The position numbers and the translations under genes are program-made. Positions 14,760 to 53,220 of a DNA stretch of 64,000 nt are shown piece after piece. Below the pieces are notes generated by a model, which saw only the letters and a list, made by a program, of their open reading frames with translations, was not told the origin of the DNA and ran no database searches. The DNA comes from Meghimatium bilineatum (taxonomy: Eukaryota; Mollusca; Gastropoda; Stylommatophora; Philomycidae). The DNA lies in contig CM067307.1 in NCBI GenBank assembly GCA_034231615.1, positions 4,545,147 to 4,609,146 of the forward strand, given 5' to 3'. The number at the start of each line of letters is the position of its first letter. The first letter of the stretch is position 1.

Positions 14760-14872
14760 ACACAATAATTTTACGATATACTAAATAATGTTACAATATA
14801 CAAAATGTGTTACTATATGCAACATAATGTTACACTCTGTAAAACAATGTTACAATATATACACATAATGTT
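14760..14872. repeat. Degenerate ~18-bp ATAATGTTACA repeat, left part
   Basis: Five to six loose copies of ATAATGTTACAATATACA. The array resumes at 15292 after a LINE insertion. Confidence 0.65.
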
Positions 14873-15291
14873 CAATCAATCAACCAAGTGCCATGCCGAA
14901 TGGCGTTGGCGATCATGTTTCTCCATGACTCTCTGTCTCTTGTGTTGTCAATAAGCTCGGTTGGTGAACTTCTACTGTGCCACAATACTAGTCCATCTAG
15001 TGACTTTTCTCTTTTTCGTTCCCTCTTTTCCCCTTGATCTTTCCAGTGGTTATTAAGTGTTCAAGTTGTGTTCTCCTCAGCACATGCCCTAGAAACATTG
15101 ACTGTCTGCCCCTAATATTTGATGTGATTGATCTTTTTATTCCGGCATCAATGAGAACATCTGCATTAGTTTTCTTAGGTGCTCATGGTATTTTCATCAT
15201 TATTCTCAGAAATCACATCTATGTTGCCCCCAGTTCGTTTTGAATGTTTTTGTTTACAGTCCATGCTTCACAACCATAAAAAAGCATACTT
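14873..15291 (-). mobile_element. LINE 3' fragment inserted into a tandem array
   Basis: The minus strand corresponds to the C-terminal region and tail of an RTE-like LINE. The plus-strand text GTGCCATGCCGAATGGCGTT resembles tails at 23160 and 51810. CACATAATGTT (11 bp) stands on both sides (14862-14872 and 15292-15302), which could be a target-site duplication, although the host array itself repeats this word. Confidence 0.6.
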
Positions 15292-16519: not shown

Positions 16520-16735
16520 TTGGGGGGGGGGAGGTTGGATCTCAACATTTTTACAGCTGTTGACAAGGAGAAGGTGGTGAGGTTGACAAAAGTTGAAGTC
16601 AACAATACTGTTTTTCATATCCTGTGCATATAAATTGTTAGAGTTGTGTGTTGCTGTTATACTTTTTATATAACTGAGCGGGAGCTTTAAATTTTTGACG
16701 GTTGTTGACAAGAGAGTTGATGTCAAAATATGTTG
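16520..16735. repeat. Dispersed GTTGAC-rich repeat, copy 2
   Basis: GTTGACAAGGAGAAGG, GTTGACAAAAGTTGAAGTCA and AATACTGTTTTTCATA parallel the sequences at 85-370 and 21690-22060. It lies directly upstream of the dapF gene. Confidence 0.6.
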
Positions 16736-16776: not shown

Positions 16777-16794
16777 TTATATTTCTTTTCAGAA
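16777..16794 (+). promoter_or_regulatory. Splice acceptor before the dapF start codon
   Basis: A T-rich tract (TTGTTATATTTCTTTTCAG) ends in CAG six bases before the ATG at 16800. This is a textbook 3' splice site. It implies at least one upstream 5' exon, non-coding or adding N-terminal residues, and marks the gene as part of a eukaryotic transcript. The upstream exon was not located. Confidence 0.65.
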
Positions 16795-16799
16795 TCAGA

Positions 16800-18170
16800 A
16801 TGGATGTCCATTTTTCCAAATATCACGGAGCAGGAAATGACTTCATTTTTATTGACAACAGAGAAAGCAAGTACAAACTAAATGATAATCAACGTAAGAA
16901 ATTGTGCACGAGACACTTCGGAATCGGCGCAGATGGACTTTTAGAAATAAAATCAAGTGATAAAGCTGATTTTAAGTTGTTATACTTTAATTCTGATGGA
17001 AAAGAAGGAACACTGTGTGGAAACGGGTCACGATGTGCTATCGCATTTGCCTTTAAGATTGGTGTGAAACACACCAAAGTTATTTCAACAGATGTGGGAG
17101 TCACTGAACGGGATCACATACTTCAAACAGCTACTGAAAGCGATCAACAAATTAACAATATGAACAACAAATCTTGTATCGAAGAATCGAAGCATAGAAC
17201 CAGTCATATATTAGATAGAGGTGACTCAGAACTGGATAGAGGGCGGTCAGAACACGATAGCTGTAAGGACCTGACATTTGAAGCTTTTGATGGTATTCAC
17301 GTAGGAGGACTTTCATGTGGAACCATCGACAGTTCCTGTTACAATAGCAGCATGTTTTATACTGATATAAAGGACGTCGACCGTGAGAATGTTAAGGTTT
17401 ATAGCAATGGAGATATCTTTGTCAATACTGGCTCCCCACACCACGTGATTTGTTTGTCTGCTTCCGTTGGAGATTTGGATGTTGTTAAACAGGGGAGAAA
17501 AGTCATGCAAGAATTATACAAAAAAGATGGATGCAACATAAATTTTGTTGCTAGGTGTAGAAATACCTTGAATTCGAGTAATTTTGAAAGGGAAATTGAG
17601 AAATGTCGTGATTGCGAAATAATGTTTGGCAATGTTGATTCTGATAATGCCAAGATATTCAGCGAGAAATGTCTCCAAAAAGGGCCTAGTCAGCTGAGAC
17701 CAGAAGATAAGGGCGATGCCGACATAGTTACTCGTGAAACCTCAAACATCTGCCTCCATGTCAGGACGTATGAAAGAGGAGTGGAAAATGAGACCATGGC
17801 CTGTGGAACCGGATGTGTAGCAGTTGCTATAGCTGATTACGTCAAACAGTCGCAAGAAAAGTACTCAAAAAACGATGACGAGAAACTCGAATTTTTCAAC
17901 GTGGAAGACAACACTTCAAGTGACGTATTCAACATCTCTAAATATGGAAATAAAAATGACAATACAAAACTGGCAAAAAATAACATTCCTGGCGGTATCT
18001 ACAAATTGGAAAGTGAAAAGAGAACAATTTTCATGCCGGGGGGTTGTTTACTTGTAACATTTACCGTGACTAATCAAGAAAAACCTTTGTGTGGCAGCAT
18101 AATTAGGTTTTGTGATATGAAATTGTCAGGGCCAGTACAACATGTCTTTGATGGAGTTTGCGTGCTTTGA
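16800..18170 (+). CDS. dapF: Diaminopimelate epimerase (bacterial-type, horizontally acquired)
   Basis: The enzyme interconverts LL- and meso-2,6-diaminopimelate by a two-cysteine, cofactor-free mechanism. Known motifs appear in order: KYHGAGNDFIFIDN (7-20), RHFGIGADGL (38-47), YFNSDGKEG (62-70), catalytic Cys73 in CGNGSRC, EAFDGIH (161-167), NTGSPHHV (209-216), NINFV (246-250), RTYERGVENET (322-332), catalytic Cys335 in ACGTGC, and PGGCLLVTF (413-421). At 456 aa it is much longer than the bacterial enzyme (about 270). The excess sits in three hydrophilic stretches at about 103-157, 252-317 and 350-395, between motifs. The ATG at 16800 starts exactly where bacterial DapF proteins start. No N-terminal targeting peptide is visible, so I expect it to be cytosolic. 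The coding region has no intron but has a splice acceptor just upstream. NTGSPH...V and the neighbouring spacing recall Bacteroidetes DapF (from memory). No other lysine-pathway gene is nearby. An ATTAAA lies at about 18378 as a possible poly(A) signal. Confidence 0.9.
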   Translation: MDVHFSKYHGAGNDFIFIDNRESKYKLNDNQRKKLCTRHFGIGADGLLEIKSSDKADFKLLYFNSDGKEGTLCGNGSRCAIAFAFKIGVKHTKVISTDVGVTERDHILQTATESDQQINNMNNKSCIEESKHRTSHILDRGDSELDRGRSEHDSCKDLTFEAFDGIHVGGLSCGTIDSSCYNSSMFYTDIKDVDRENVKVYSNGDIFVNTGSPHHVICLSASVGDLDVVKQGRKVMQELYKKDGCNINFVARCRNTLNSSNFEREIEKCRDCEIMFGNVDSDNAKIFSEKCLQKGPSQLRPEDKGDADIVTRETSNICLHVRTYERGVENETMACGTGCVAVAIADYVKQSQEKYSKNDDEKLEFFNVEDNTSSDVFNISKYGNKNDNTKLAKNNIPGGIYKLESEKRTIFMPGGCLLVTFTVTNQEKPLCGSIIRFCDMKLSGPVQHVFDGVCVL

Positions 18171-18451: not shown

Positions 18452-19115
18452 CATGGTGTTAATGTTTGTTGGGCATATATTTAAAATGTTTGTTGAATAA
18501 AATTTAAGATGTTTGTTGAATATATTCAAGATGTTTGTTGAATATAGTCAAGATGTTTGTTGAATATACTCAAGATGTTTGTTGAATAAAATTTAAGATG
18601 TTTGTTGAATATATTCAAGATGTTTGTTGGACATATATTCAAGCTGTTAGTTGAATAAATTTACAGATGTTTGTTTAATATATGCAAGATGTTTGTTGGA
18701 CATATATTCAAGATGTTTGTTGGACATATATTCAAGATGTTTGTTGAAATAATTTACAGATGTTTGTTGAATATATGCAAGATGTTTGTTGAATATATGC
18801 AAGATGTGTGTTGGACATATATTCAAGATGTTTGTTGGACATATATTCAAGATGTTTGTTGAAATAATTTACAGATGTTTGTTGAATATATGCAAGATGT
18901 TTGTTGGACATATATTCAAGATGTTTGTTGGACATATATTGAAGATGTTTGGTGGACATATATTCAAGATGTTTGTTGGACATATATTCAAGATGTTTGT
19001 TGGACATATATTCAAGATGTTTGTTGGACATATATTTAAGATGTTTGTTGAAATAATTTACAGATGTTTGTTGAATATATGCAAGATGTTTGTTGGACAT
19101 ATATTCAGCATGTTG
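18452..19115. repeat. 24-bp minisatellite (GATGTTTGTTGGACATATATTCAA)
   Basis: About 27 copies built on GATGTTTGTTGGACATATAT plus four bases, intermixed with a GAAATAATTTACA variant that recurs in a higher-order pattern. Because 24 is divisible by three, it gives long spurious frames on both strands (YMSNKHLE on minus, FVGHIFKM on plus). Confidence 0.95.
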
Positions 19116-19414
19116 AATGTATTTTAAGACGTCTATTAAATACATTGTAAGCAGTTTAGTGACTAGCTTCCACCCGTGTGGCATCTGGGGCCTGTGCTTC
19201 TAGTTTAGGGAATAAAGAATGGAGCCACTGTCTTCTTTCCATGCATGTCATAGGAGGTGACTAAAGAAAATTAGGCATAGGCAAACAATCTGTCTTCTGT
19301 GAAATGTGTGTAACTGCATGTCTCGCTTCGATTTCTTACTTTTGTATTCGGACACTTGGTCCACGTGGATGACGTAGAGACGCGGGTCATCGGACATTTC
19401 ACATTTGTATTTCT

Positions 19415-20475
19415 GTGGCAGACTCCTAGGTGTCGGGGATTGCTAGATGTCGGGAATGTGGCAGACTCCTAGGTGTCGGGGATTGCTAGATGTCGGGAAT
19501 GTGGCAGACTCCTAGGTGTCGGGGATTGCTAGATGTCGGGAATGTGGCAGACTCCTAGGTGTCGTGGATTGCTAGATGTCGGGAATGTGGCAGACTCCTA
19601 GGTGTCGTGGATTGCTAGATGTCGGGAATGTGGCAGACTCCTAGGTGTCGGGGATTGCTAGATGTCGGGAATGTGGCAGACTCCTAGGTGTCGTGGATTG
19701 CTAGATGTCGGGAATGTGGCAGACTCCTAGGTGTCGGGGATTGCTAGATGTCGGGAATGTGGCAGACTCCTAGGTGTCGGGGATTGCTAGATGTCGGGAA
19801 TGTGGCAGACTCCTAGGTGTCGGAGATTGCTAGATGTCGGGAATGTGGCAGACTCCTAGGTGTCGGGGATTGCTAGATGTCGGGAATGTGTCAGACTCCT
19901 AGGTGTCGGGGATTGCTAGATGTCGGGAATGTGGCAGACTCCTAGGTGTCGGGGATTGCTAGATGTCGGGAATGTGGCAGACTCCTAGGTGTCGGGGATT
20001 GCTAGATGTCGGGAATGTGGCAGACTCCTAGGTGTCGGGGATTGCTAGATGTCGGGAATGTGGCAGACTCCTAGGTGTCGGGGATTGCTAGATGTCGGGA
20101 ATGTGGCAGACTCCTAGGTGTCGGGGATTGCTAGATGTCGGGAATGTGGCAGACTCCTAGGTGTCGGGGATTGCTAGATGTCGGGAATGTGTCAGACTCC
20201 TAGGTGTCGTGGATTGCTAGATGTCGGGAATGTGTCAGACTCCTAGGTGTCGTGGATTGCTAGATGTCGGGAATGTGTCAGACTCCTAGGTGTCGGGGAT
20301 TGCTAGATGTCGGGAATGTGTCAGACTCCTAGGTGTCGTGGATTGCTAGATGTCGGGAATGTGTCAGACTCCTAGGTGTCGTGGATTGCTAGATGTCGGG
20401 AATGTGGCAGACTCCTAGGTGTCGGGGATTGCTAGATGTCGGGAATGTGGCAGACTCCTAGGTGTCGGAGATTTC
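19415..20475. repeat. 43-bp satellite array, ~25 copies
   Basis: Units of exactly 43 bp begin GTGGCAGACTCCTAGGTGTC and end GATGTCGGGAAT, with only scattered single-base variants (GGGG/GTGG/GGAG, GTGG/GTGT). Single-copy relatives of the unit occur inside other family C copies at about 23094 (TGTGGCAGACTCTTCGGG) and 43856 (GACAGACTCCTAGGTGACG), so the array grew from an internal piece of the mobile repeat. Confidence 0.97.
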
Positions 20476-20696
20476 TAGATGCGCCATTACACAGATGGAA
20501 GAGATCTGACAGAAAACTGATGAACAATATGCTCAAGAAGTTAAGCTATGCACCTTGCAGGACGTGATTATCTTGAGATGTTTCTGCGCTGCAATGGTCC
20601 CCGTCGGGGAATCAACAGCTAAAAATAGCCAATAAGATCTACTAGATAATAAAAACAAAGGAGAATCAGTTTTCTTACGGGATGACTGATTTTTGA

Positions 20697-21689: not shown

Positions 21690-22060
21690 CTCAATTAGGG
21701 AAACTCCATAAATTACGTAAATATTTAGGAGAGTGTAGGGGGCCTGAGAATGTTTAGCAGTTGCTAACAAGGGGAATGGGCTGTTTGACAAAAGTTGACG
21801 TCAATAATAGTTTTTATACACTAATTGAATTGTTTGAACATTTGTTTTATAGATATGGAAAAAAACATGTATTATTTGCGAGCTTCTTTCAAACAATATT
21901 TACAGGAGGGGGAAGGATCATTCCTTTACATAATAAAGCAGAAGGCGGGTCCCAGAATTCTTGACATGTTGTTGACAGGGAGGGAGGGGTAAACATATAG
22001 CAAAAGACTGTTGACGTGATTTATTGACATCTCTTATGTGAAAAAAAAACGTCACTGTTT
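21690..22060. repeat. Dispersed GTTGACGTC repeat, copy 3
   Basis: AATTAGGGAAACTCCATAAA, GTTGCTAACAAGGGGAATGG, AAAAGTTGACGTCAATAATA and TTTTTATACACTAATTGAAT parallel the sequences at 16520 and 1-370. Likely a degraded non-autonomous element. Confidence 0.55.
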
Positions 22061-38000: not shown

Positions 38001-41000
38001 TTTCGCATTCTCGATATTGACTCATGCTCATTCATTTCAAAATCCTCTGATCATGCTGTTGTGGTGGCAAGACTAGCTAATTGGTCGGCCCGTTTCTTTC
38101 CCTCCACGCCCACGTGTCATGGGACAAAAATAAGCGTGAGTTTTCGTAGTGATGCCTGCATTTTAGCTCTCTCTAATGACTCTTTCTAATGTGGTTTCTT
38201 GAGAGCCATTAAGGTATATGGTCAACACAGGCCTGTAATTTGTTCTGATAAATAATACATTACTGGTGGTGTGGTCACAATATCATATTTACCAATTTCC
38301 TTGAATTACTCTGGTACTCATTTCTTGAGATAGAATCAACAATGAAGTTCTGATGGAAAAATACTCAACTGTGAATTGTCATCTTCTGTGTTTCTTCTAA
38401 AATTCCTGTGGCTTAGTAATTTGTAGTATACATACCACAATACAATTTGTCATGGTTTCCAGCTTCACCTCAATATCTGCGTATTTCGGTCTGACACATC
38501 CAACTTCAGCATCGCTTTTAGGTCACTTTGACATTGGGTGTTGACAGTCAACATTTTCAGTCGTCTCTTACAGTTTTTGTGGCAGGTCATGGTGATGCTA
38601 TGTTCCCCATGCAATCCCCAGCAACACACATGCTAACTATGAATAAATCCTAAACTCCCTCACTATTCAGACAGTGCATCACAACTGCGTGTGTACCCAA
38701 TGGGCTCATGCATAAATGGGACAAGGAAGGCAGCCTTGGCCCAACTCTACTGTCGAGTTTTTCCTTAACTGGAACCAGGCTCGCTCATGAGAAAAGGTTC
38801 AGTACCTGATAGGTACAGGCACAGAATGTTTAATTACACGAGGCAAGTTCACTGACTGTGGAACACTTTGTGCGAGATAGACATGAACAACAATCATCTC
38901 AGCGAAGAGTCATTGCGCACTCGTGAGCCTGTCGACATATAGGCAGGCTGTCACACGCTAGGGAACCCAACTATCCGAATTAAAGGCATGGCGAAAATTG
39001 ATGTGCTGGGCCTCAGATGTCTGGGCCACAAAGTGAGCCAACCAAGGTGCAAATAATGCAGCTCAACTGTCGAGCTAGTAGTACAATGTGCTTCACGATC
39101 CCCGGCGGAAATCACAAGAAGTATTCATTGTGGTTATAAGAGAGCGAACACAGAAAAAGAACAACTGCATGCTGCTCTTTTGTACTCTGCTATGATATGT
39201 CAACAGATATCTAAAAGAGTATAACCATTAAAGAAACTGTCTGTCCAACCTACCTGTCCTTCCACAGCCAAATGAAAGGCTCCTTTTTTAAATGGCAACA
39301 TGGATCCATTATGGTTTCTGGTACCTTCAGGAAAAACGATTACTTTCAACTGAAATATAAATCAAGATAAAATTCCATTAAAAACCTATAAATGCTATTA
39401 GTTTTTAAGTACATCACACAGCACATCCTCAGCACTCTCTTTTTTTTAAAGTTTTAAGTACATCACACAGCATGCTCTTAGTTTTAAAGTTTTAAGTACA
39501 TTATATAGCACATCTTCAGCACACTCTTCATTTAAAATTGTAAGTACATAACACAGCACATCCTCAGCAAGATCTTAGTTTAAAAAGTGGGTGTGACCAT
39601 CTGATGCTTCAGGAAATTTTGCAACCTAGGTCAGGATCTATCTCTATAGTCATTTCCATGTGGGCTGTTAAGTGTCTTGAGCAGGAGGGTGGGGAGTGTG
39701 AATTGTCTGTCTTTGGTCATTTGGGTAGCATTTACTATGGTCAGCCAGTGTCTTGCACAATTTTCTGCTGCTGTTAGCATAAAGGACTGGTTGTGTTAGT
39801 TCCTTTCTCATGATGTGGCCAAGCCACCTGGTTTGCTGTTTCTCGATGCAGTCTTGACATGAGATGGTTTTTATTTCTTTCATGATATCTTCCTTTCTAT
39901 TTTAGTGTCTTCAGATATTTATAGCTTTCCTCAAACATCTCATTTCTCTATCTTTCTCTACTAGTAACATAGCTTTCCTCATTCATCTCATTTCACACAA
40001 TGTGATCTTTGTCAAGGGACATGTTATTTGACATTGGTAGCACTGAAATTTAGTGCTCCGGTTATGAACAGATGAGCGACAGCCCTGACCATGTCCTAGC
40101 GGCCAACCTGTATTTAGTGCTCCGACTATCAACAGGTGGCACATGGGATGCAATGAAAAGCAACTCTGCGAAAGACTTCACAATTCATTAGGAGAGCCTA
40201 AAATAAGGCAAACCTGCTAGGCCTGAATAATTGCACTATTAGATAAAAGGGACTGCATAACTGGCCATGAGACCCATTCCAGTAACTATGAACCAATGCT
40301 GGGTTGCTAATGAACACAATAGGAAAGGATTCTTGGCAGGAGAGCTTAAGTTCAGCTCTGATTTCAACTCCTCATGTTACAAAGAGATAGAAAACCCACA
40401 AACCCCTAGTATTTTACTTCACTGCGTAGACTTCGCATTGCACAAAATGAAAGTTAGTCTTTTGCATACGAAATAAAACTCGAGAAACAGGAAGTAAGAG
40501 CTAATCAATTGTAATTCCTGGGGATGGAAACAACTCCAACCATATTCTATACAATCCTACCTGAACTCCTTAACAAGATAGCTTGCAGTGATGCAAGTCT
40601 ACATGCACAAATTGAACACATAAAATGAAACAATAACTTAAATACATGTAAATACAACAAAGTCGAAGAATAATCACAAAGGACAGACATTTAAAGTCTT
40701 CTGAATTTTTCATTTTAAAAATAATTTACAGAACAAAATTTACCCGTCTACTCTTTATTAAGTTGGATGTTCCATCCATAGTTTTCCGAGCACTCTGTGT
40801 GTTTACACGGTTTATGTAGATAGTGCCACACATCCAGGCACCTAATCCAAACGTCCCAGATGACCAGATCAACTCCTTCTTTGCCAGGATAACGCAATTT
40901 TCTGGCCAGATTGCAAACAAAGCTATTGGATGAGAAATTAAACATTTCACATTTTAGTTTTTAAATAGTGCAATGTTGTTGTTTGACCATCACATGATGA

Positions 41001-44000
41001 TGACCATTTGTTACATCCACTTTTGAAATGCAATTAGAATTATGTCCTTCAAGAATGAATTCATAGATGGCTAATAAGCTCTATTCTAGCAGCAAATGTC
41101 CTCGGCATAGGATGACCACTGTAGATGGTTTTTGGTCTACCTGTGACTTAAGTGCAATAAATATTTGTTAGTTGGTAGGAGATTTATGCTTCTCTTTTAC
41201 TGTGATTCTTCATCAAGAACCAGCATTACTGCACAAGGGGCATTCTCATAAATTTTCTGCTTGCCATTTCATCAGCCATCTAAAAGTATATAAGATTAGT
41301 GTCCCAGTCATTTGTTGGTTGTGAGTTCTCCTGATCTTTTTCCAGAGAGGAAGTACTTCCTCCCCATTTCTATCTTTCTCTGAACATGTATAGCGTCTCT
41401 TTTAGTTTCCTCTTCATCATTTTGTGGTGTATCTATTTTTCTTGTGAAACATACTCCATTAATCATCATCATGCCTGCAAGCTCACCATAAGGTTGCATG
41501 AACATACAAAAATATGTGATGATGAAGTTCAAGTAATCTCTATCTATGTTCCTTCAGTGCCAAATATGGCGCGTAAGGTAGAAACCAGAGCTCTCCGGTT
41601 CGAGCAAGTTGATCATAATGCTTGTAGTTGAGACCCATAGTCATACCCTATTTGCTGGTTGTTCTACAAAGAGTCTCTCTTGGTCTTCCTTCTTTTCTTT
41701 TGCCATCTTGTACCAATTTTAATGCTTGTTGTGGTAGCCTGCTATCATTCATTCTGAGTAAATATCCGATATAAGTCTGTTTTTTTTTTCTTATTTTTGT
41801 AGAAACATTGCTGTTTGGTGTCTTCTTTTACTTGCTTGTTTGACTTGAATTCTTCCCAACCAATATGTACTTGAATTCTTCCCAACCAATATGTACTTGA
41901 ATTCTTCCCAACCAATATGTACTTGAATTCTTCTCAACCAATATGTACTTGAATTCTTCCCAACCAATATGTACGGTACTTGAATTCTTCCCAACCAATA
42001 TGTACTTGAATTCTTCCCAACCAATATGTACTTGAATTCTTCCCAACCAATATGTACTTGAATTCTTCCCAACCAATATGTACTTGAATTCTTCCCAACC
42101 AATATGTACTTGAATTCTTCCCAACCAATATGTACTTGAATTCTTCCCAACCAATATGTACAGTACTTGAATTCTTCCCAACCAATATGTACTTGAATTC
42201 TTCCCAACCAATATGTACTTGAATTCTTCCCAACCAATATGTACTTGAATTCTTCCCAACCAATATGTACTTGAATTCTTCCCAACCAATATGTACATGT
42301 CATCATTTTCACTCTATCTATTCTACTTTTTCCCCTCCTTATCTTCTCACTTCTGTCTCCCCCTCCCATAACTTTTCTTGTCATGCTGAACTTCCTGCAC
42401 TTCTCCCATTTCCTTCTCTTTTCCTTTTCTTCCTATCACCACCATACCATATGTGTTCTCTATGTAATATTTGGTGTCTGTGGTATTTTATTTGTCCTGA
42501 TGAAGGCTTTTAAGTTGAAATGTTGTTTGTCATTGTCTCCCATTGCTAGGTTGTTGACTTATTTTGGTAACACGGATACCTATTTCTGTTCATTTTGCTA
42601 TTTGCCTTGTGTTACCCCAGCCACCCATTTCCAATCTCTGGTTGTTACCAGACACCGGAACTTTTATCTAAATATTTAAGAGTTTTCTAAGACATTTATT
42701 TTCACATGAATTTAATATCCTTCTCAGACTCCTCTGGATCTCTCTTATAGCAGGACAATGATCTTATCAGATCTCCAGCAGGATGTCGTCTAGAGAACGG
42801 AAATGTGTTGTGTCACCGTTTCATTTGTGCCAATGACTTACTTAACACATCCATCTTCAGCAGATTTGAGAATTTAATACTGAACAGAGCGGACGAACAA
42901 AGGCTCAGGTGTAAGGTTCAGACAGTCCACCAATGACATTTTCCCATGCCCACTCTGCAACAAACTAAATCGCTCATGGATTGGCAGATTTAGCCATGAA
43001 ACAATATGTTCTGCTCATATTGACTCCATCTGGCACAAGCTTGCTTCAGATGGTTTGTCAAGGCGAATAAGACCATATTACATTTATCAAACTCAAATAT
43101 GAACTTACGGAGCATGTCAATTGAGCTCTGATGGTTGACAACAATAATGATTGGTTCATCTTTCTTCAGGTTCTCCTGGCCCCGTATTATCACTTTGACT
43201 CCCAACAGCGGACTTAACAATTTTGTCACCCAAAAAGACACAAAGCTGTAGAGAAATAGACATCAATATAGGTGCACATGATTGTATAGAGAAATAGACA
43301 TCAATATAGGTGCACATGATTGTATCAAGAAATAGACATCAATATAGGTGCACATGATTGTATCAAGAAATAGACATCAATATAGGTGCACATGATTGTA
43401 TCAAGAAATAGACATCAATATAGGTACACATGATTGCATCAAGAAATTTTGTTTTCATTCATTTTAAAACTTCCACTGGGTCTCTCTTCTAGGAGGTCAA
43501 TTATCGTACTAGGATGTAATCCAGAGAAGCATTGTGGCTGATAAATTTGCACCAATGGTCCAACACATCCTACTTCTGCAGATGCATAAAGAATAATAAG
43601 GTATCTATTAGTCTTCATCCATGTGGTAACCAGGACATGGACTTCTAGTTCAGGGAGCAAAGAATAGGGCCACTGTCTTTTTTTCCAGACATGTTATAGG
43701 AGTGTGTCATGTGTCACATTCTTTCCAGAATGCAGTCTTCCTTACGAATCTCCTGAAATGCTACAGGCCTGCTTCAGAAATGCGGTCTTTGGCTAGCTCT
43801 CCCGCTTCCTCTAGCAACAGGTGCAAGCATTATGGAGAATTCTTAATCTTTTGTGACAGACTCCTAGGTGACGAGGAATATTAGGTGTGCCATTAATGCT
43901 GATGGGTCAACAGATTTCATAGAATAATGATGAACTAGTGGGCCCAGATGTATGTCACACTCCTGGGATGACGTGATGATCCGGGATACTGCCCTACTAA

Positions 44001-47000
44001 AATTCCCCTCCCCATAAACCCTCTTAATATAAGCTAGCATGTGAGACAACAATCTTTATGCATTACAGTGTCGCCTCGTTACATTAGTGTTGCCTTGTTA
44101 CATTAGAGCAGTGTTTCCCAACATGGGAGCAATATGATTGTACAGGGGGACAATTCGAACAAGTTGTAATTAGGCTTCATTAGGGAGTAATTCAGTTTTT
44201 TTAATATTAAAAAAATATGTAGGCATATATGTTACATAGAGGGGGGGGGCATCAGAATCTTTGAAAGATTTAGGTGGGGAATGGTACAAAAAAGGTTAGG
44301 AAATACTGCATTTAGAGTGTCACCTCGTTACATTAGAGTGTCACCTCATTTACTCAATTGAGGTGCTATGCTTTTGTCAGAAAGACTATTGGCTGTTAAG
44401 AGTTACCCGCTCAGGGTATTTTCATCATCATCTTTTAGTCTAAATATACAAGTGATCACTTTAATTACTAAATATACAAGTGATCACTTTAATTACTAAA
44501 TATACAAATGATCATTAAAATTCATATCTGTAAAATGGGTGTGTTGGCAAGACCTAAAAGAGGAGCAAAGAATAGCAACACTGGGATCTGCCATGCATGT
44601 CATAAGAAATGACTAGAGACATTTGGGGGGTGGAGTTCGTTGTTCCATCCCTTCCCATAGGTCACAGTAGCCCAGATGTCATAACGAGGTCAGATATGTC
44701 AGGTCAAGAGGCATATATATTAAATGCAGTTGTTAACCATGACAGAACACATTCTATTCTCCAGACTGCATTTCCATTCTCCCGACTGCATCTCCATTCT
44801 CCCGACTGCATCTCCATTCTCCAGATTGCATCTCCAGATTTCATCCTTCCAACCTCCAGACTGAATCCTTCCAAACAAATGGTGTTTGATAATGAACGCA
44901 GCAGAAGAAGAGAAGTCCCTTTATGCAATAATAATGTGAATGACAAATAGTGTTAATATTGTTCAGCAGCAAACTACATATGTCCAAAGCACGTACGTTT
45001 TTGCGTTGTTATTTCATCTTTGCGTCTGATTATCTGATTATCCATTGCAATATTTCGGAGAACAAAAGGTTTAACTGGTGGTGCCCATCTCCTCTCCATT
45101 TATTTTTACATTTACAACTTAACTACTATTCCTAAGCTGTATAATAATATAACTATATGTTCTATTTTATCTCCATCATACCCCATCGAGGCCAGAACCT
45201 TGAAGTGGTGATGGGGCTTAGTTCAGCCATCAGAGGCTGGAAACTAAGACTGGTCGGGCACTCCCACTCGAGCAGGACCATAGTCCGGCCCAAGTAAGCA
45301 GAGTGCTGAAGACGGAGGCAACCAGCCAAAAGGCGCACAGATAATCAGGTTGCCACGCATAAAACACAATGGAAACATGTCTGCATCTAATAAACGTTAT
45401 GGTGCCTGCCCTGTGGCGGACGTTCAGGCAGGGACGGTGCCGGGCCCTATACCTCGAAAGGGCCCAACCTCAGTTACTGGAAGTCCTTCTCAATTGCCCC
45501 GAGGAGCCAGGAGGCAAGGGAATAGAGCTACTGGCCAAACAAACAAACGACCAATAAAAATAATGCACTGGAATGCTGAGGGTGTCAACAGTAAAAGAGA
45601 TGGATACAGCAAAAAATTGGAACTTGAAAATGTCCTCAGTGAAGAACAAGTTAATATATGCTGTATCCAAGAAACACACCTCAGCAGCGACATAGCCTTC
45701 AAAATCAGAGGCTACCAGTGCTACCGATCTGACCGAAAAGACAGGCGAAAGGGTGGAATTCTGACACTAGTTAAAAACAATATCAGCGCATGTCAGCTGG
45801 AAGTATACATGGACGGGGCAGAATACCAGATGCTCCACCTAAAAACAGACAGTGCAGAATTCCATCTCCTGAACTACTACTGCCCAAATGATAAACCATT
45901 GGCACTAGACACAATTCCAGACAAAGAAAGGCTTATGGTGTGTGGTGACTTCAACAGCCACTCTCAGAGCTGGGGCTACGATCATATCGACAAGAGAGGT
46001 GAGGAACTTGAGAGCTGGCAGGATGAAAATAATCTCATTCTTATTAACCAGCCAGCTGACTCACCAACCTTCTACTCGAGAGCATGGCACACCACCTCTA
46101 CACCAGACCTGGCATTCTACTCACCAGGCCTGGAATGGAACATCACACGTGTCGTTGGAAAGCAGCTTGGGGGTAGTGACCACAGACCAGTATTTCTGGA
46201 AATTCACAATGAATATACCAAGGACAGCAGCACGCTCACTAGGTGGAACTATAAGAGGGCAGACTGGAAAATGTACCAGCATTTAACCAGTGTTCTAGCT
46301 AAGGACATGAACTTGGACAAAGACATCAATAGAGCAGTGAGTGAATTTAATAGATGTATACTACATGCTGCTAGTAAAACCATACCCAGGGGGGCACGCA
46401 AAAACTACAAACCCTACTGGAATGATGAACTGGAAAAGCTGCAAAATGAGATGGAAACATCTAGAAAGCAGGCTGAGAACAGACCTAGCCAAGAACATCA
46501 CAACAAATATCAGCAAACAAAGGCTAAATTTCAAAGAGCCAAGTTACAAGCCAGACGGAACAGCTGGAAAGAAAAAACAGAGTCGCTGAACCTAGAAAGA
46601 GATACTAGGAAATTATGGAAACTTGTAAAACAACTAAATGATGAAGGTACAGGGAGAAATACCAGGATCACACTTTATAAAGATAAAAACATTTTAACAG
46701 GTAAACATGCAGCTGATTACTTTGCAGATTCCTTTGCAGAAGACAATAACGTCAAAGTCAGCCCAGACAAACAACAGGAGGTTCGAGTGAACCAGCAAAA
46801 CATTGGACAAGACGAACCTATACCTGAAGTCATGGAGGCACCAATCACAATGAGAGAACTTGAGCATGCAATATCCAAATTGAAAATGAAAAAGTCCCCT
46901 GGAGCTGATGGAGTGTCCAATGAAATGATTAGAAACCTGGGAATTGCAGCAAGAGCAAAGCTGCTGCAAATCTTTAACACAAGCTGGTCCACAGGTAATG

Positions 47001-50000
47001 TACCACAGGCATGGAGAGAAGCAATAATGATACCTCTCCTCAAATCAGGAAAAGATGGCAACACAGTCTCCAACTACAGGCCCATCAGCCTCACAAGCTG
47101 TCTATGCAAAACAATGGAACGCATTATCAATCTTAGGATGCAGTGGTACCTTGAAAGTGAAAACCTTCTGGTATCACAGCAAGCAGGTTTCAGACAGTGC
47201 TACTCTACTGAAGATCAGGCAACCTACCTCTCCCAAGAGATTGAGGATGCCTTCCAAGATAAGAAACTGGTACTAGCAGCATGGATAGACCTCAGGAAAG
47301 CATTTGATAAGGTCTGGAAAGAAGGGCTCCTAAAGAAATTGCGAAATTGCAGGGTTAGCTCAAGAATGTACAAATGGGTAAAAGCATACCTGCATAATAG
47401 AAGAGCCAGGGTACAATTAGATGGTCGCAAAAGCAAGAAAGTCCTACTGCGTCATGGAGCCCCCCAGGGAGGAGTCCTGTCACCCACACTTTTCTTGGTT
47501 TACATCAATGACCTAGTTGCTGAACTACCACACGGGATCAAAGTGGCAATGTATGCTGGCGACCTGGTGATCTGGTGCACGGAAGAACATGCGACAGTGG
47601 CCACTAAACAAATACAAAGAGCTATCGATGCCTTAACCTTATGGGCAAATAGATGGTGTGTCAGCATTAACACAGATAAGTGCAGCACTACACTCTTTAC
47701 CCTCTCACCAAAACAAAAAGCCGGTCATATCAAGATAGACGGAGAGCTCTTGAAAGAAGACAAACAACCAACATACCTCGGAGTTACTTTTGATGATAAG
47801 CTGACATGGAAGCAGCACATAAACAAAGCAACAACAAAAGCCAGGAGGAAGTTAGCTATCCTGAGAAAACTAAGTGGAACCACATGGGGAGCCAGTGGGA
47901 ATATACTCAGTAAAGTTTACCAACAAGGCATAAGACCACACCTGGAATATGGTTCAGCTGCGTGGTGTCCTGCATCAAACACCACATTACAAGATCTAGA
48001 TAAAGTGCAAAACCAGGCACTTAGAATAATGTTGGGAGCAATGAAATCAACACCCATAGCAGAGATGCAGAAAATGGGAAGAATGCAAACACTTGGCGAA
48101 CGCAGAGACACAAAAGTACTAATTCAAGCGGAAAAGTTTCAGTGTATGCCAAGTCATCCAATGAAGGAAAGATTCCAAAACCTAGCAATGGGGCGACTGA
48201 AAAGAAGCAGCTTTATCCATCAAGCTAAACGACTCCGTAGACAACTTACAGACCTACCTGAAGTTGACAGCCCCTTAAGGTCTGTACCAGAACAAACCCC
48301 ATGGAGTGAAAGGCATGGAATGCCAATATACATTCAGACCCATGTGAAAGGAATACTAAGCGAGGACGAACAGAACAGTGTGCAGCGGAGGACAGCCACC
48401 CTCAGTTTCCTGGACGAGGAATATCCACAAGATATATGGGTCAGAGTATACACAGATGGGTCAGCACAGAATGCTGTGAGGAATGGAGGTGCAGGTGTAT
48501 ATATAGAATATCCACACAAGCCTAGAGATACAATCAGAACACCGACAGGAAAATTCTGCAATAATTATGATGCAGAAATCCAGGCAATTACTGTGGCAGC
48601 TAAAAAACTGCTGAACTCCAACTCTGACCTACAGCCTGTGGTATTCCTGACAGATGCAAAGTCAGTGCTTCAAGCTCTCCAGTCTGGAAAACTAACAGAC
48701 TTGAAAAAACTACTTAGCGAATTGTCTTACCAGTATAGGGTAACCATGCAGTGGATACCCTCTCACTGTGGAATACCAGGAAATGAAAAAGCAGACCAAC
48801 TGGCTAAGGAAGGTGCTGCCGAAGATCAACCAGATATACCAATCACCTACCATCATAAAAAACAGATGATCAAGTCAATAAGAAAGCCACAAACACCAAC
48901 ACAAGATGACTATCACATTATGAACAGATCAGAACAAGTTATAATTCTACGTCTCAGAACAGGACACAACCGACTCCGCAGTCACATGTATACAAAGTTC
49001 AAGATTGGCAACACGGCCATGTGTACATGTGGACAGGCAGTACAGAGTGCCAAACATATACTTCAAGAGTGTTCTGAGCATGAAACGCTGAGGCAGACAT
49101 ATTGGCCAGAGGAAACAACACTGGAATCAAATCTCTATGGGACACTGTATGAACTACAAAAGACAGTGAGTTTTATTAAGGAGACAGAATTGCAGATATA
49201 GACATGTTTCAAGTGAACGAAAGAAGAAGAAGAAGATCTCCATCATACAGACAATAAATATGTTTTAAATGTAAACAATTTCAAGAATCTGTGTAAGAAT
49301 TTCAATATTAACTCGGTTAATTGGTACAGATATACTACACTATATCTGTGACTTAACATATCTACTAGCTAAAAATCTTTCTATTAAAATGCACTATATT
49401 TTAATTCAGTGGTTCCCAACCTTTGTCAAATCACTACCACAATCTAGAGAAGGAAAGAAGTGACCCTTAAACTTCAAAACGAGTATTATACATACATATA
49501 TATATATATATATACATACAACAATGCAACAAAATCTTCCTCTACTGTGTTCGTTGTCAAACTCTTGATGTAGTCTAGAGAACTAGTGAACAGAGTTTGA
49601 TGTCTCATGGTTTACAGCTTGGCTATGATATCCGTGCCTTTCAACCCAATAAATTCCATTTCAGCATGGTAATAGAACAATAATTCTACTAGATTTTGAG
49701 CATAATATAGTTCAGAGAAAGAAAATGCATTGTGTGACTAGGATATAGTTCAGAGAAAGAAGATGCATTGTGTGACTAGGATATACTTCAGAGAAGGAGA
49801 TGCACTGTGTGACTAGGATATAGTTCTGAGAAAGGAGATGCATTGTGTGACTAGGATATAGTTCAGAGAAGGGAGATGCATTGTGTGACTGTTTTATTTG
49901 TGCCAATGGTCCAAAACTTTGGAATTTGATGGTGTAGGCCTACATATATATATTTCATGGAATTTGATTGTGTAAACATTGTGCAGGAAAGATGAAGTGA

Positions 50001-52554: not shown

Positions 52555-53220
52555 ACAAAGGCCTCAGTCTAAACAAGAAGATAACATAAGTAATGGTTGT
52601 TTGAAATAAATACACACCGCCAAAATGTAGTATTACTATCAATGATGCACAATTAAATCACACGGATAAAGTCATGTATCTTGGTATCATTTTCACACCA
52701 GATGGCAGGTGCACCAGTTTTTTTTTATTTTAAAAGGGAAAATAACAACATAGCACAGGCCAATCCTTATTTATGAAAAGGAAGCATGGACGGTAAACTA
52801 AAGTGCCCAAGATAAGCTGGAGACAGCTGAGATGTGGCTTTTAAGAAGAATAATGAAAATTTCATGGACAGCCAAGAAAAAAAAATGTAGAAGTTCTCAG
52901 AGATGCTGGAGTAAAACAACAAATTATATCAAAAATTAGAAGCAGACCATCAATATTTTTAGGTCATGTGGTGAGGTAAGTAAAACGTGAACATTTAGTA
53001 ACAACCTGAAAGAGCATGGGGAGAAGAAACAGAGAAAGACAAAGAAATATATTTTTGGATGGGTTGTCACTGTGGCACAAAAATAAGCCACCAAATGTAT
53101 TTATTAACGACACAACAAACAAAGAGTTGTGGAGAAGCTAGATCGCCAACTCGGCATGGCACTTGATAGAATGATTGAAGGTCTTCAAAAAGGTGTCATG
53201 TCTTTTAATATGTCCTAAAT
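52555..53220 (+). mobile_element. LINE C-terminal fragment (RTE-like)
   Basis: Plus strand, in shifting frames: KVMYLGIIFTPDGRC, RRIMKISWTAKKKNVEVLRD, SIFLGHVVR and a terminal FKKVSCLL. Multiple stops. Confidence 0.7.

What the first reader, a model, noticed from the sequence alone, without database searches (positions are those of the whole stretch)
16800..18170. Bacterial diaminopimelate epimerase gene in an animal-type genome
Seen: an intact 456-codon DapF with both catalytic cysteines (Cys73, Cys335) and every core motif, a splice acceptor directly upstream, and animal-type dispersed repeats on both sides. Families A, C and GTTGAC are shared with the AGPAT locus, which argues against contamination. 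Known: animals lack the DAP lysine pathway; transferred dapF is reported from sap-feeding insects with symbionts. Inference: a domesticated transfer, perhaps from a Bacteroidetes-like donor, acting on DAP from symbionts, diet or peptidoglycan. A lone DapF without DapA/B/D or LysA nearby raises the question of what its substrate source is.
Basis: partly seen in the sequence, partly recalled or inferred. Interest (0 to 1): 0.88.

Follow-up and report, generated by a model that had tools for sequence, protein, structure and literature searches.

The report
Ancient bacterial lysine-pathway gene in snails
A land snail or slug genome carries an intact bacterial-type enzyme gene (diaminopimelate epimerase) that many other snails and limpets also carry, so it was probably taken from a Bacteroidetes-like bacterium once, long ago, and kept; what snails use it for is unknown.

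Summary
Window 16800-18170 (+) is an intact 456-codon diaminopimelate epimerase (DapF) with both catalytic cysteines, in a repeat-rich animal-type window. The closest relatives are DapF proteins of 12 named gastropod species: land snails and slugs, pond snails, Aplysia, caenogastropods and limpets. With the window and 10 unnamed sequences they form one clade (100/99; 100/97) beside Bacteroidota, apart from plant, cyanobacterial, proteobacterial and firmicute DapF. So it is neither contamination nor a private transfer: most simply one old acquisition inherited since. The window groups with Arion (74% over the core). Catalytic residues are fixed in all 22 gastropod-clade proteins compared, while low-confidence loops lengthened in heterobranchs. 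Best explanation: a cytosolic two-cysteine epimerase acting on DAP from ingested or resident bacteria. Substrate and partner enzymes are untested; the genome search did not complete. My searches found no paper on gastropod dapF, though databases already name several proteins. A new member of a known kind (animal dapF transfers: whitefly, mealybug, placozoan), notable for age and breadth.

The parts
16800..18170 (+). dapF coding sequence, 456 codons plus stop, one open frame, no N-terminal extension (its start aligns with the start of most other gastropod and bacterial DapF)
16791..16793 (+). acceptor-like AG (16791-16792) and first base of the putative exon, 7 bases before the ATG; predicted 5' UTR intron
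   Evidence: no RNA evidence
17016..17018 (+). codon of catalytic Cys73 (H. influenzae C73), in LCGNGSRC
   Evidence: coordinate computed from residue number and checked on the sequence
17802..17804 (+). codon of catalytic Cys335 (H. influenzae C217), in ERGVENETMACGTG
   Evidence: coordinate computed from residue number and checked on the sequence
17073..17267 (+). insertion 1, residues 92-156, mostly low-confidence in the model, variable between species
17310..17351 (+). insertion 2, residues 171-184, short and variable
17556..17735 (+). insertion 3, residues 253-312, largely low-confidence, variable
17853..18020 (+). insertion 4, residues 352-407, largely low-confidence, variable
18496..18501 (+). 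first AATAAA after the stop codon (possible poly(A) signal, inside the start of a 24-bp-unit satellite)
   Evidence: consensus match only
14871..15287 (.). dispersed repeat upstream, second copy at 52763-53179 in opposite orientation
39203..43262 (-). AGPAT-like acyltransferase gene: coding stretches 42993-43262 and 39203-39361, about 3.6 kb apart (exon borders not determined); context showing a eukaryotic gene in the same window
45350..49201 (+). long non-LTR retrotransposon ORF (endonuclease, reverse transcriptase, RNase H); context

Best explanation
The gene is a gastropod nuclear dapF that came from a bacterium of, or close to, the Bacteroidota, most simply in one transfer before crown gastropods diverged, and has been inherited vertically and kept under strong constraint on its catalytic core. 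The protein most likely works as an ordinary PLP-independent two-cysteine epimerase in the cytosol: Cys73 and Cys335 face each other across the cleft, one takes the alpha proton and the other returns one on the opposite face, interconverting L,L- and meso-diaminopimelate. The likely substrate is DAP freed from the peptidoglycan of ingested or resident bacteria. Shown here: intact gene, fold family, conserved residues, gastropod distribution, clade, Bacteroidota affinity. Inferred: single early transfer, catalysis, cytosolic location, DAP as substrate, dietary or microbial source. The use of the product (lysine by a decarboxylase, or DAP disposal) is unknown.
Confidence: 0.6

Rival explanations
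1. Same origin, but the enzyme was repurposed: it racemises another amino acid (as DapF-fold relatives do for histidine or O-ureidoserine) in a gastropod-specific role, and DAP is no longer its substrate in some or all lineages.
For: Structural tie with O-ureidoserine racemase and weaker match to histidine racemases; distal-site change in 3 of 22 proteins; no partner pathway known here.
Against: The TIGR00652 equivalog cut-off is passed by the window protein and by Aplysia, although Aplysia is one of the three with the distal change; at the 15 positions compared the window protein equals the commonest residue of the 21 Bacteroidota-type DapF.
Confidence: 0.25
2. Lysine provisioning with other transferred genes: gastropods also hold lysA (and perhaps more), so DapF is a step of a working partial DAP pathway, as in whitefly and perhaps Trichoplax sp. 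H2.
For: Published precedents pair dapF with lysA in animal nuclei (PMC4607527 passages; PMC6879607 passage).
Against: No lysA among the 19 window stretches scanned with Pfam, dapF itself included, but the window was not scanned whole and no genome search was possible; wide diets and no known bacteriocytes in these snails (recalled).
Confidence: 0.2
3. Bacterial contamination or assembly chimera.
For: Closest non-gastropod relatives are bacterial.
Against: 55% identity over the full length to Arion and a gastropod clade at 100/99; insertions at the same places and of similar length as in land snails; repeats shared by both flanks and the rest of the window; GC of ORF 0.389 against window 0.377.
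Confidence: 0.02
4. Vertical inheritance from an ancestral eukaryotic or opisthokont dapF, lost in most other animals.
For: Choanoflagellates have dapF (PMC7971027 passages); a placozoan too.
Against: Both other cases are described as of prokaryotic or bacterial origin in those papers.
Confidence: 0.08

Closest known systems
Gastropod DapF proteins already in public databases (e.g. Arion vulgaris A0A0B7A2Q0, Patella vulgata, Aplysia californica, Biomphalaria glabrata A0A2C9LIQ8)
   Same: Same gene: one clade, same catalytic residues, window closest to Arion
   Different: Only database names seen; my searches found no paper that discusses them
Whitefly (Bemisia tabaci) nuclear dapF, reported with dapB and lysA (PMC4607527, PMC8659303)
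   Same: Bacterial dapF transferred into an animal nucleus; whitefly dapF rescues an E. coli K-12 dapF knockout (section read)
   Different: Enterobacteriales origin in that paper, bacteriocyte symbiosis, one insect group; here Bacteroidota affinity, gastropod-wide, no symbiont context known
Mealybug (Planococcus citri) dapF, independent transfer (PMC4607527 passage)
   Same: Animal nuclear dapF
   Different: Separate transfer in a sap-feeding insect; not sampled in my tree
Trichoplax sp. H2 nuclear dapF and lysA (PMC6879607 passage)
   Same: Bacterial-origin dapF in an animal nuclear genome
   Different: Paired with lysA; not sampled in my tree, relation to the gastropod gene unknown
Salpingoeca rosetta dapF (PMC7971027 passages)
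   Same: Bacterial-origin dapF in a close relative of animals
   Different: Other DAP-pathway genes also flagged there, though they did not pass that paper's second filter; not sampled in my tree
Bacteroidota DapF (Flavobacteriaceae and others)
   Same: Core sequence, GSPHH motif, length of the ERGVENET loop
   Different: 256-303 aa in the 21 bacterial rows of A5, without the long insertions

Membership tests
Diaminopimelate epimerase (DapF, TIGR00652 / PF01678) | Score above the curated family cut-off | tested here: met
   159 bits against 114.65; 108.3 against 34.7. The related exception model NF038284 is matched below its cut-off (102.8 against 350)
Diaminopimelate epimerase (DapF, TIGR00652 / PF01678) | Two catalytic cysteines, one per half, with CGNG and CGTG motifs | tested here: met
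   Cys73, Cys335; cysteines conserved in 22 of 22 gastropod-clade and 21 of 21 bacterial rows
Diaminopimelate epimerase (DapF, TIGR00652 / PF01678) | DapF fold | tested here: met
Diaminopimelate epimerase (DapF, TIGR00652 / PF01678) | Substrate-contact residues of H. influenzae DapF (N11, Q44, N64, N157, N190, E208, R209; roles and numbers recalled) | tested here: inconclusive
   Window keeps N13, N64, N246, E325, R326; Q44 is G and N157 is S, as in all 21 bacterial rows compared
Diaminopimelate epimerase (DapF, TIGR00652 / PF01678) | L,L-/meso-DAP epimerase activity | not testable with these tools
   needs an enzyme assay
Horizontally acquired bacterial gene in an animal nuclear genome | Phylogenetic placement with bacteria | tested here: met
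   Gastropod plus Bacteroidota-type rows split from the outgroup at 100/99 in both trees; choanoflagellate and placozoan genes not sampled
Horizontally acquired bacterial gene in an animal nuclear genome | Lies among host genes and repeats | tested here: met
   Split acyltransferase gene, retrotransposon and shared repeats in the window
Horizontally acquired bacterial gene in an animal nuclear genome | Present in related genomes by descent | tested here: met
   12 named gastropod species, one clade
Horizontally acquired bacterial gene in an animal nuclear genome | Expression | not tested
   no RNA data; that the Arion record comes from a transcriptome is recalled
Symbiont-complementing dapF of sap-feeding insects | Partner genes (lysA, dapB) in the same genome and bacteriocyte expression | not tested
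   own-genome search unanswered 12 times (last)

The most novel reading that the evidence does not exclude
Gastropods took a single bacterial metabolic gene before their crown radiation and have kept it, without the rest of the pathway, for an animal role that no other animal is known to have: processing diaminopimelate (a signature molecule of bacterial cell walls) freed by digestion or infection, or racemising another amino acid, with an expanding set of disordered loops in heterobranchs as a regulatory add-on.
Probability: 0.35. Interest if true: 0.8.

Novelty: new member of a known kind. Interest (0 to 1): 0.6.

Why it matters
If right, it is one of the broader and older bacterial gene transfers into animals: shared by limpets, caenogastropods and heterobranchs, so plausibly as old as crown gastropods. 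It puts a bacterial cell-wall and lysine-pathway enzyme in animals that are laboratory models (Aplysia, Lymnaea, Biomphalaria), where it can be tested directly. It also gives a way to ask why an animal keeps one enzyme of a pathway it is not known to have.

Tried and rejected
Contamination: rejected by the gastropod clade, shared insertions and shared repeats. Plant or algal (dietary) donor: not favoured, since the Arabidopsis enzyme and the cyanobacterial one fall in the outgroup. A second, independent transfer suggested by the order limpet plus heterobranch (97/87): the species-tree order is not rejected (AU p 0.544). Donor nested inside Bacteroidota: not resolved (83/6; Bacteroidota one clade at 51/25, bootstrap not settled). 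Other DAP genes in the window: none among 19 Pfam-scanned stretches, dapF included, but the window was not scanned whole. Absence of dapF from bivalves, cephalopods and other animals: not shown, since each search scored only about 8000 candidates and listed 120. Host identity beyond the Arion-like placement was not pursued.

Literature: ten searches of an open-access library. Those pairing the gene with gastropod or mollusc terms gave 0, 0, 0, 1 and 7 papers. Of the 8, seven look unrelated by title (turtle, dolphin, food and fungal papers; listings only) and one, on a placozoan symbiont, proved relevant (PMC6879607). Two wider listings were cut: 47,510 papers, 40 listed; 34 papers, 30 listed; most of what they listed was not opened. 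PMC6390351 was listed for diaminopimel with snail, but a search of its main text found no such term. Papers seen: PMC7971027 passages and one section; PMC4607527 passages; PMC8659303 abstract, outline and one section; PMC6879607 passages; PMC6380222 passages. All other papers were seen as listings only.

Rows dropped: P0213, a near-copy of P0212, was left out of alignment A5, so residue counts are of 22 and tree counts of 23. Streptomyces and Hoeflea rows with very long branches were removed for the second tree, and Arthrobacter, Subdoligranulum and a cyanobacterial row added; Arthrobacter is itself a long branch. Of 80 loci fetched, 15 were used in trees, chosen by hand for spread; of the bacterial protein hits, 20 were used in trees and 21 in A5.

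Full report
What is there. The window holds an intact 456-codon ORF at 16800-18170 on the plus strand. Its GC (0.389) fits the window (0.377), and its length is far beyond chance (longest frame 190 codons in 20 simulations). It is DapF by Pfam and by the NCBIfam equivalog model, both above curated cut-offs. An acceptor-like site with a long pyrimidine tract ends at 16792, seven bases before the ATG, and the first AATAAA after the stop is at 18496. These suggest a gene with a 5' UTR intron and a single coding exon; no RNA evidence was available.

Context. The window is a eukaryotic, repeat-rich sequence: 83 tandem-repeat rows, some overlapping, a 1283-codon non-LTR retrotransposon ORF at 45350-49201, and a split acyltransferase gene on the minus strand (42993-43262 and 39203-39361, matching positions 2-54 and 93-124 of PF01553). 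Repeats are shared between the dapF flanks and distant parts of the window (14871-15287 with 52763-53179; 19171-19256 with 43616-43702; 16547-16615 with 21750-21815), so the ORF lies in host DNA as assembled.

Relatives. The best hit is Arion vulgaris (55% over the full length). Three searches, each scoring about 8000 candidates and listing 120, gave 12 named gastropod species: Arion vulgaris, Bradybaena similaris, Candidula unifasciata, Lymnaea stagnalis, Physella acuta, Biomphalaria glabrata, Aplysia californica, Batillaria attramentaria, Babylonia areolata, Patella caerulea, Patella vulgata and Lottia gigantea. The only other animal name listed was Idotea baltica, in a record marked as unverified contamination.

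Tree. In a maximum-likelihood tree of 64 proteins the 23 gastropod-clade rows (window, 12 named, 10 unnamed) form one side of a branch at 100/99; in a second tree of 65 with other outgroups, at 100/97, its bootstrap not fully settled. The window pairs with Arion at 100/98 in both. The gastropod and Bacteroidota-type rows are separated at 100/99 from the outgroup: Neochlamydia, Citrobacter, Monoglobus and Arabidopsis in both trees, Streptomyces and Hoeflea in the first, Arthrobacter, Subdoligranulum and a cyanobacterium in the second. Whether gastropods nest inside or beside Bacteroidota is unresolved. The first tree joined limpets with heterobranchs (97/87), against the usual species tree, but the species-tree grouping is not rejected (AU p 0.544). 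Five core columns tell most gastropod-clade rows from most bacterial rows, for example Gly169 (21 of 22) against Ala (20 of 21). One transfer before the split of limpets, caenogastropods and heterobranchs is the simplest reading; the age of that split (Cambrian-Ordovician) and the species tree are recalled.

Anatomy. Aligned to solved DapF, Cys73 and Cys335 are the catalytic pair. Positions N13, G46, C73, G74, N75, H214, N246, E325, R326, C335, G336 and T337 are identical in 22 of 22 gastropod-clade rows. Position 212, Asn157 in H. influenzae, is Ser in 21 of 22 gastropod-clade rows and in 21 of 21 bacterial rows, while the five solved chains displayed (two of H. influenzae) have GNPH; it marks the Bacteroidota-type enzyme. 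N64 is changed in 3 of 22 (Aplysia, P0211, Babylonia) and G76 in 1 of 22 (P0123). Lengths rise from 271-276 aa (limpets and two unnamed rows) through 283-316 (caenogastropod group) to 317-425 (pond snails and Aplysia) and 451-461 (land snails and slugs), by insertion at four places. In the AlphaFold model (mean pLDDT 73.7) the stretches under 50 are 94-106, 110-153, 176-180, 269-305 and 371-395, all inside the insertions, while the core is mostly above 90, with some blocks near 80. The insertions diverge fast: against Arion 60 of 189 insertion positions are identical, against 190 of 261 in the core. There is no N-terminal extension, so a cytosolic enzyme is likely (inference).

Noticed in passing
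18462-19114 and 19414-20481: Two satellites downstream of dapF: 24-bp units (ATGTTTGTTGGAAATATATTCAAG) and about 25 copies of a 43-bp unit at 98% matches.
   Followed up: no
45350-49201 +: Long open ORF of a non-LTR retrotransposon with endonuclease, reverse transcriptase and RNase H domains; possibly a recently active element.
   Followed up: partly
P0007 (Aplysia), P0211, P0214 (Babylonia): The position of H. influenzae Asn64 is Lys, Thr or Ser in these three DapF proteins, while 19 of 22 gastropod-clade and 21 of 21 bacterial rows keep Asn: possible substrate shift.
   Followed up: partly
P0217, P0218 (unnamed records): Two 276-aa proteins inside the gastropod clade, joined to each other at 97/85 and to limpets at 97/92, from contigs of 1.3-1.4 kb; may be other gastropods or another mollusc group.
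   Followed up: no
P0270: A DapF named Deltaproteobacteria MAG falls among Bacteroidota in the tree; perhaps a mis-binned contig.
   Followed up: no
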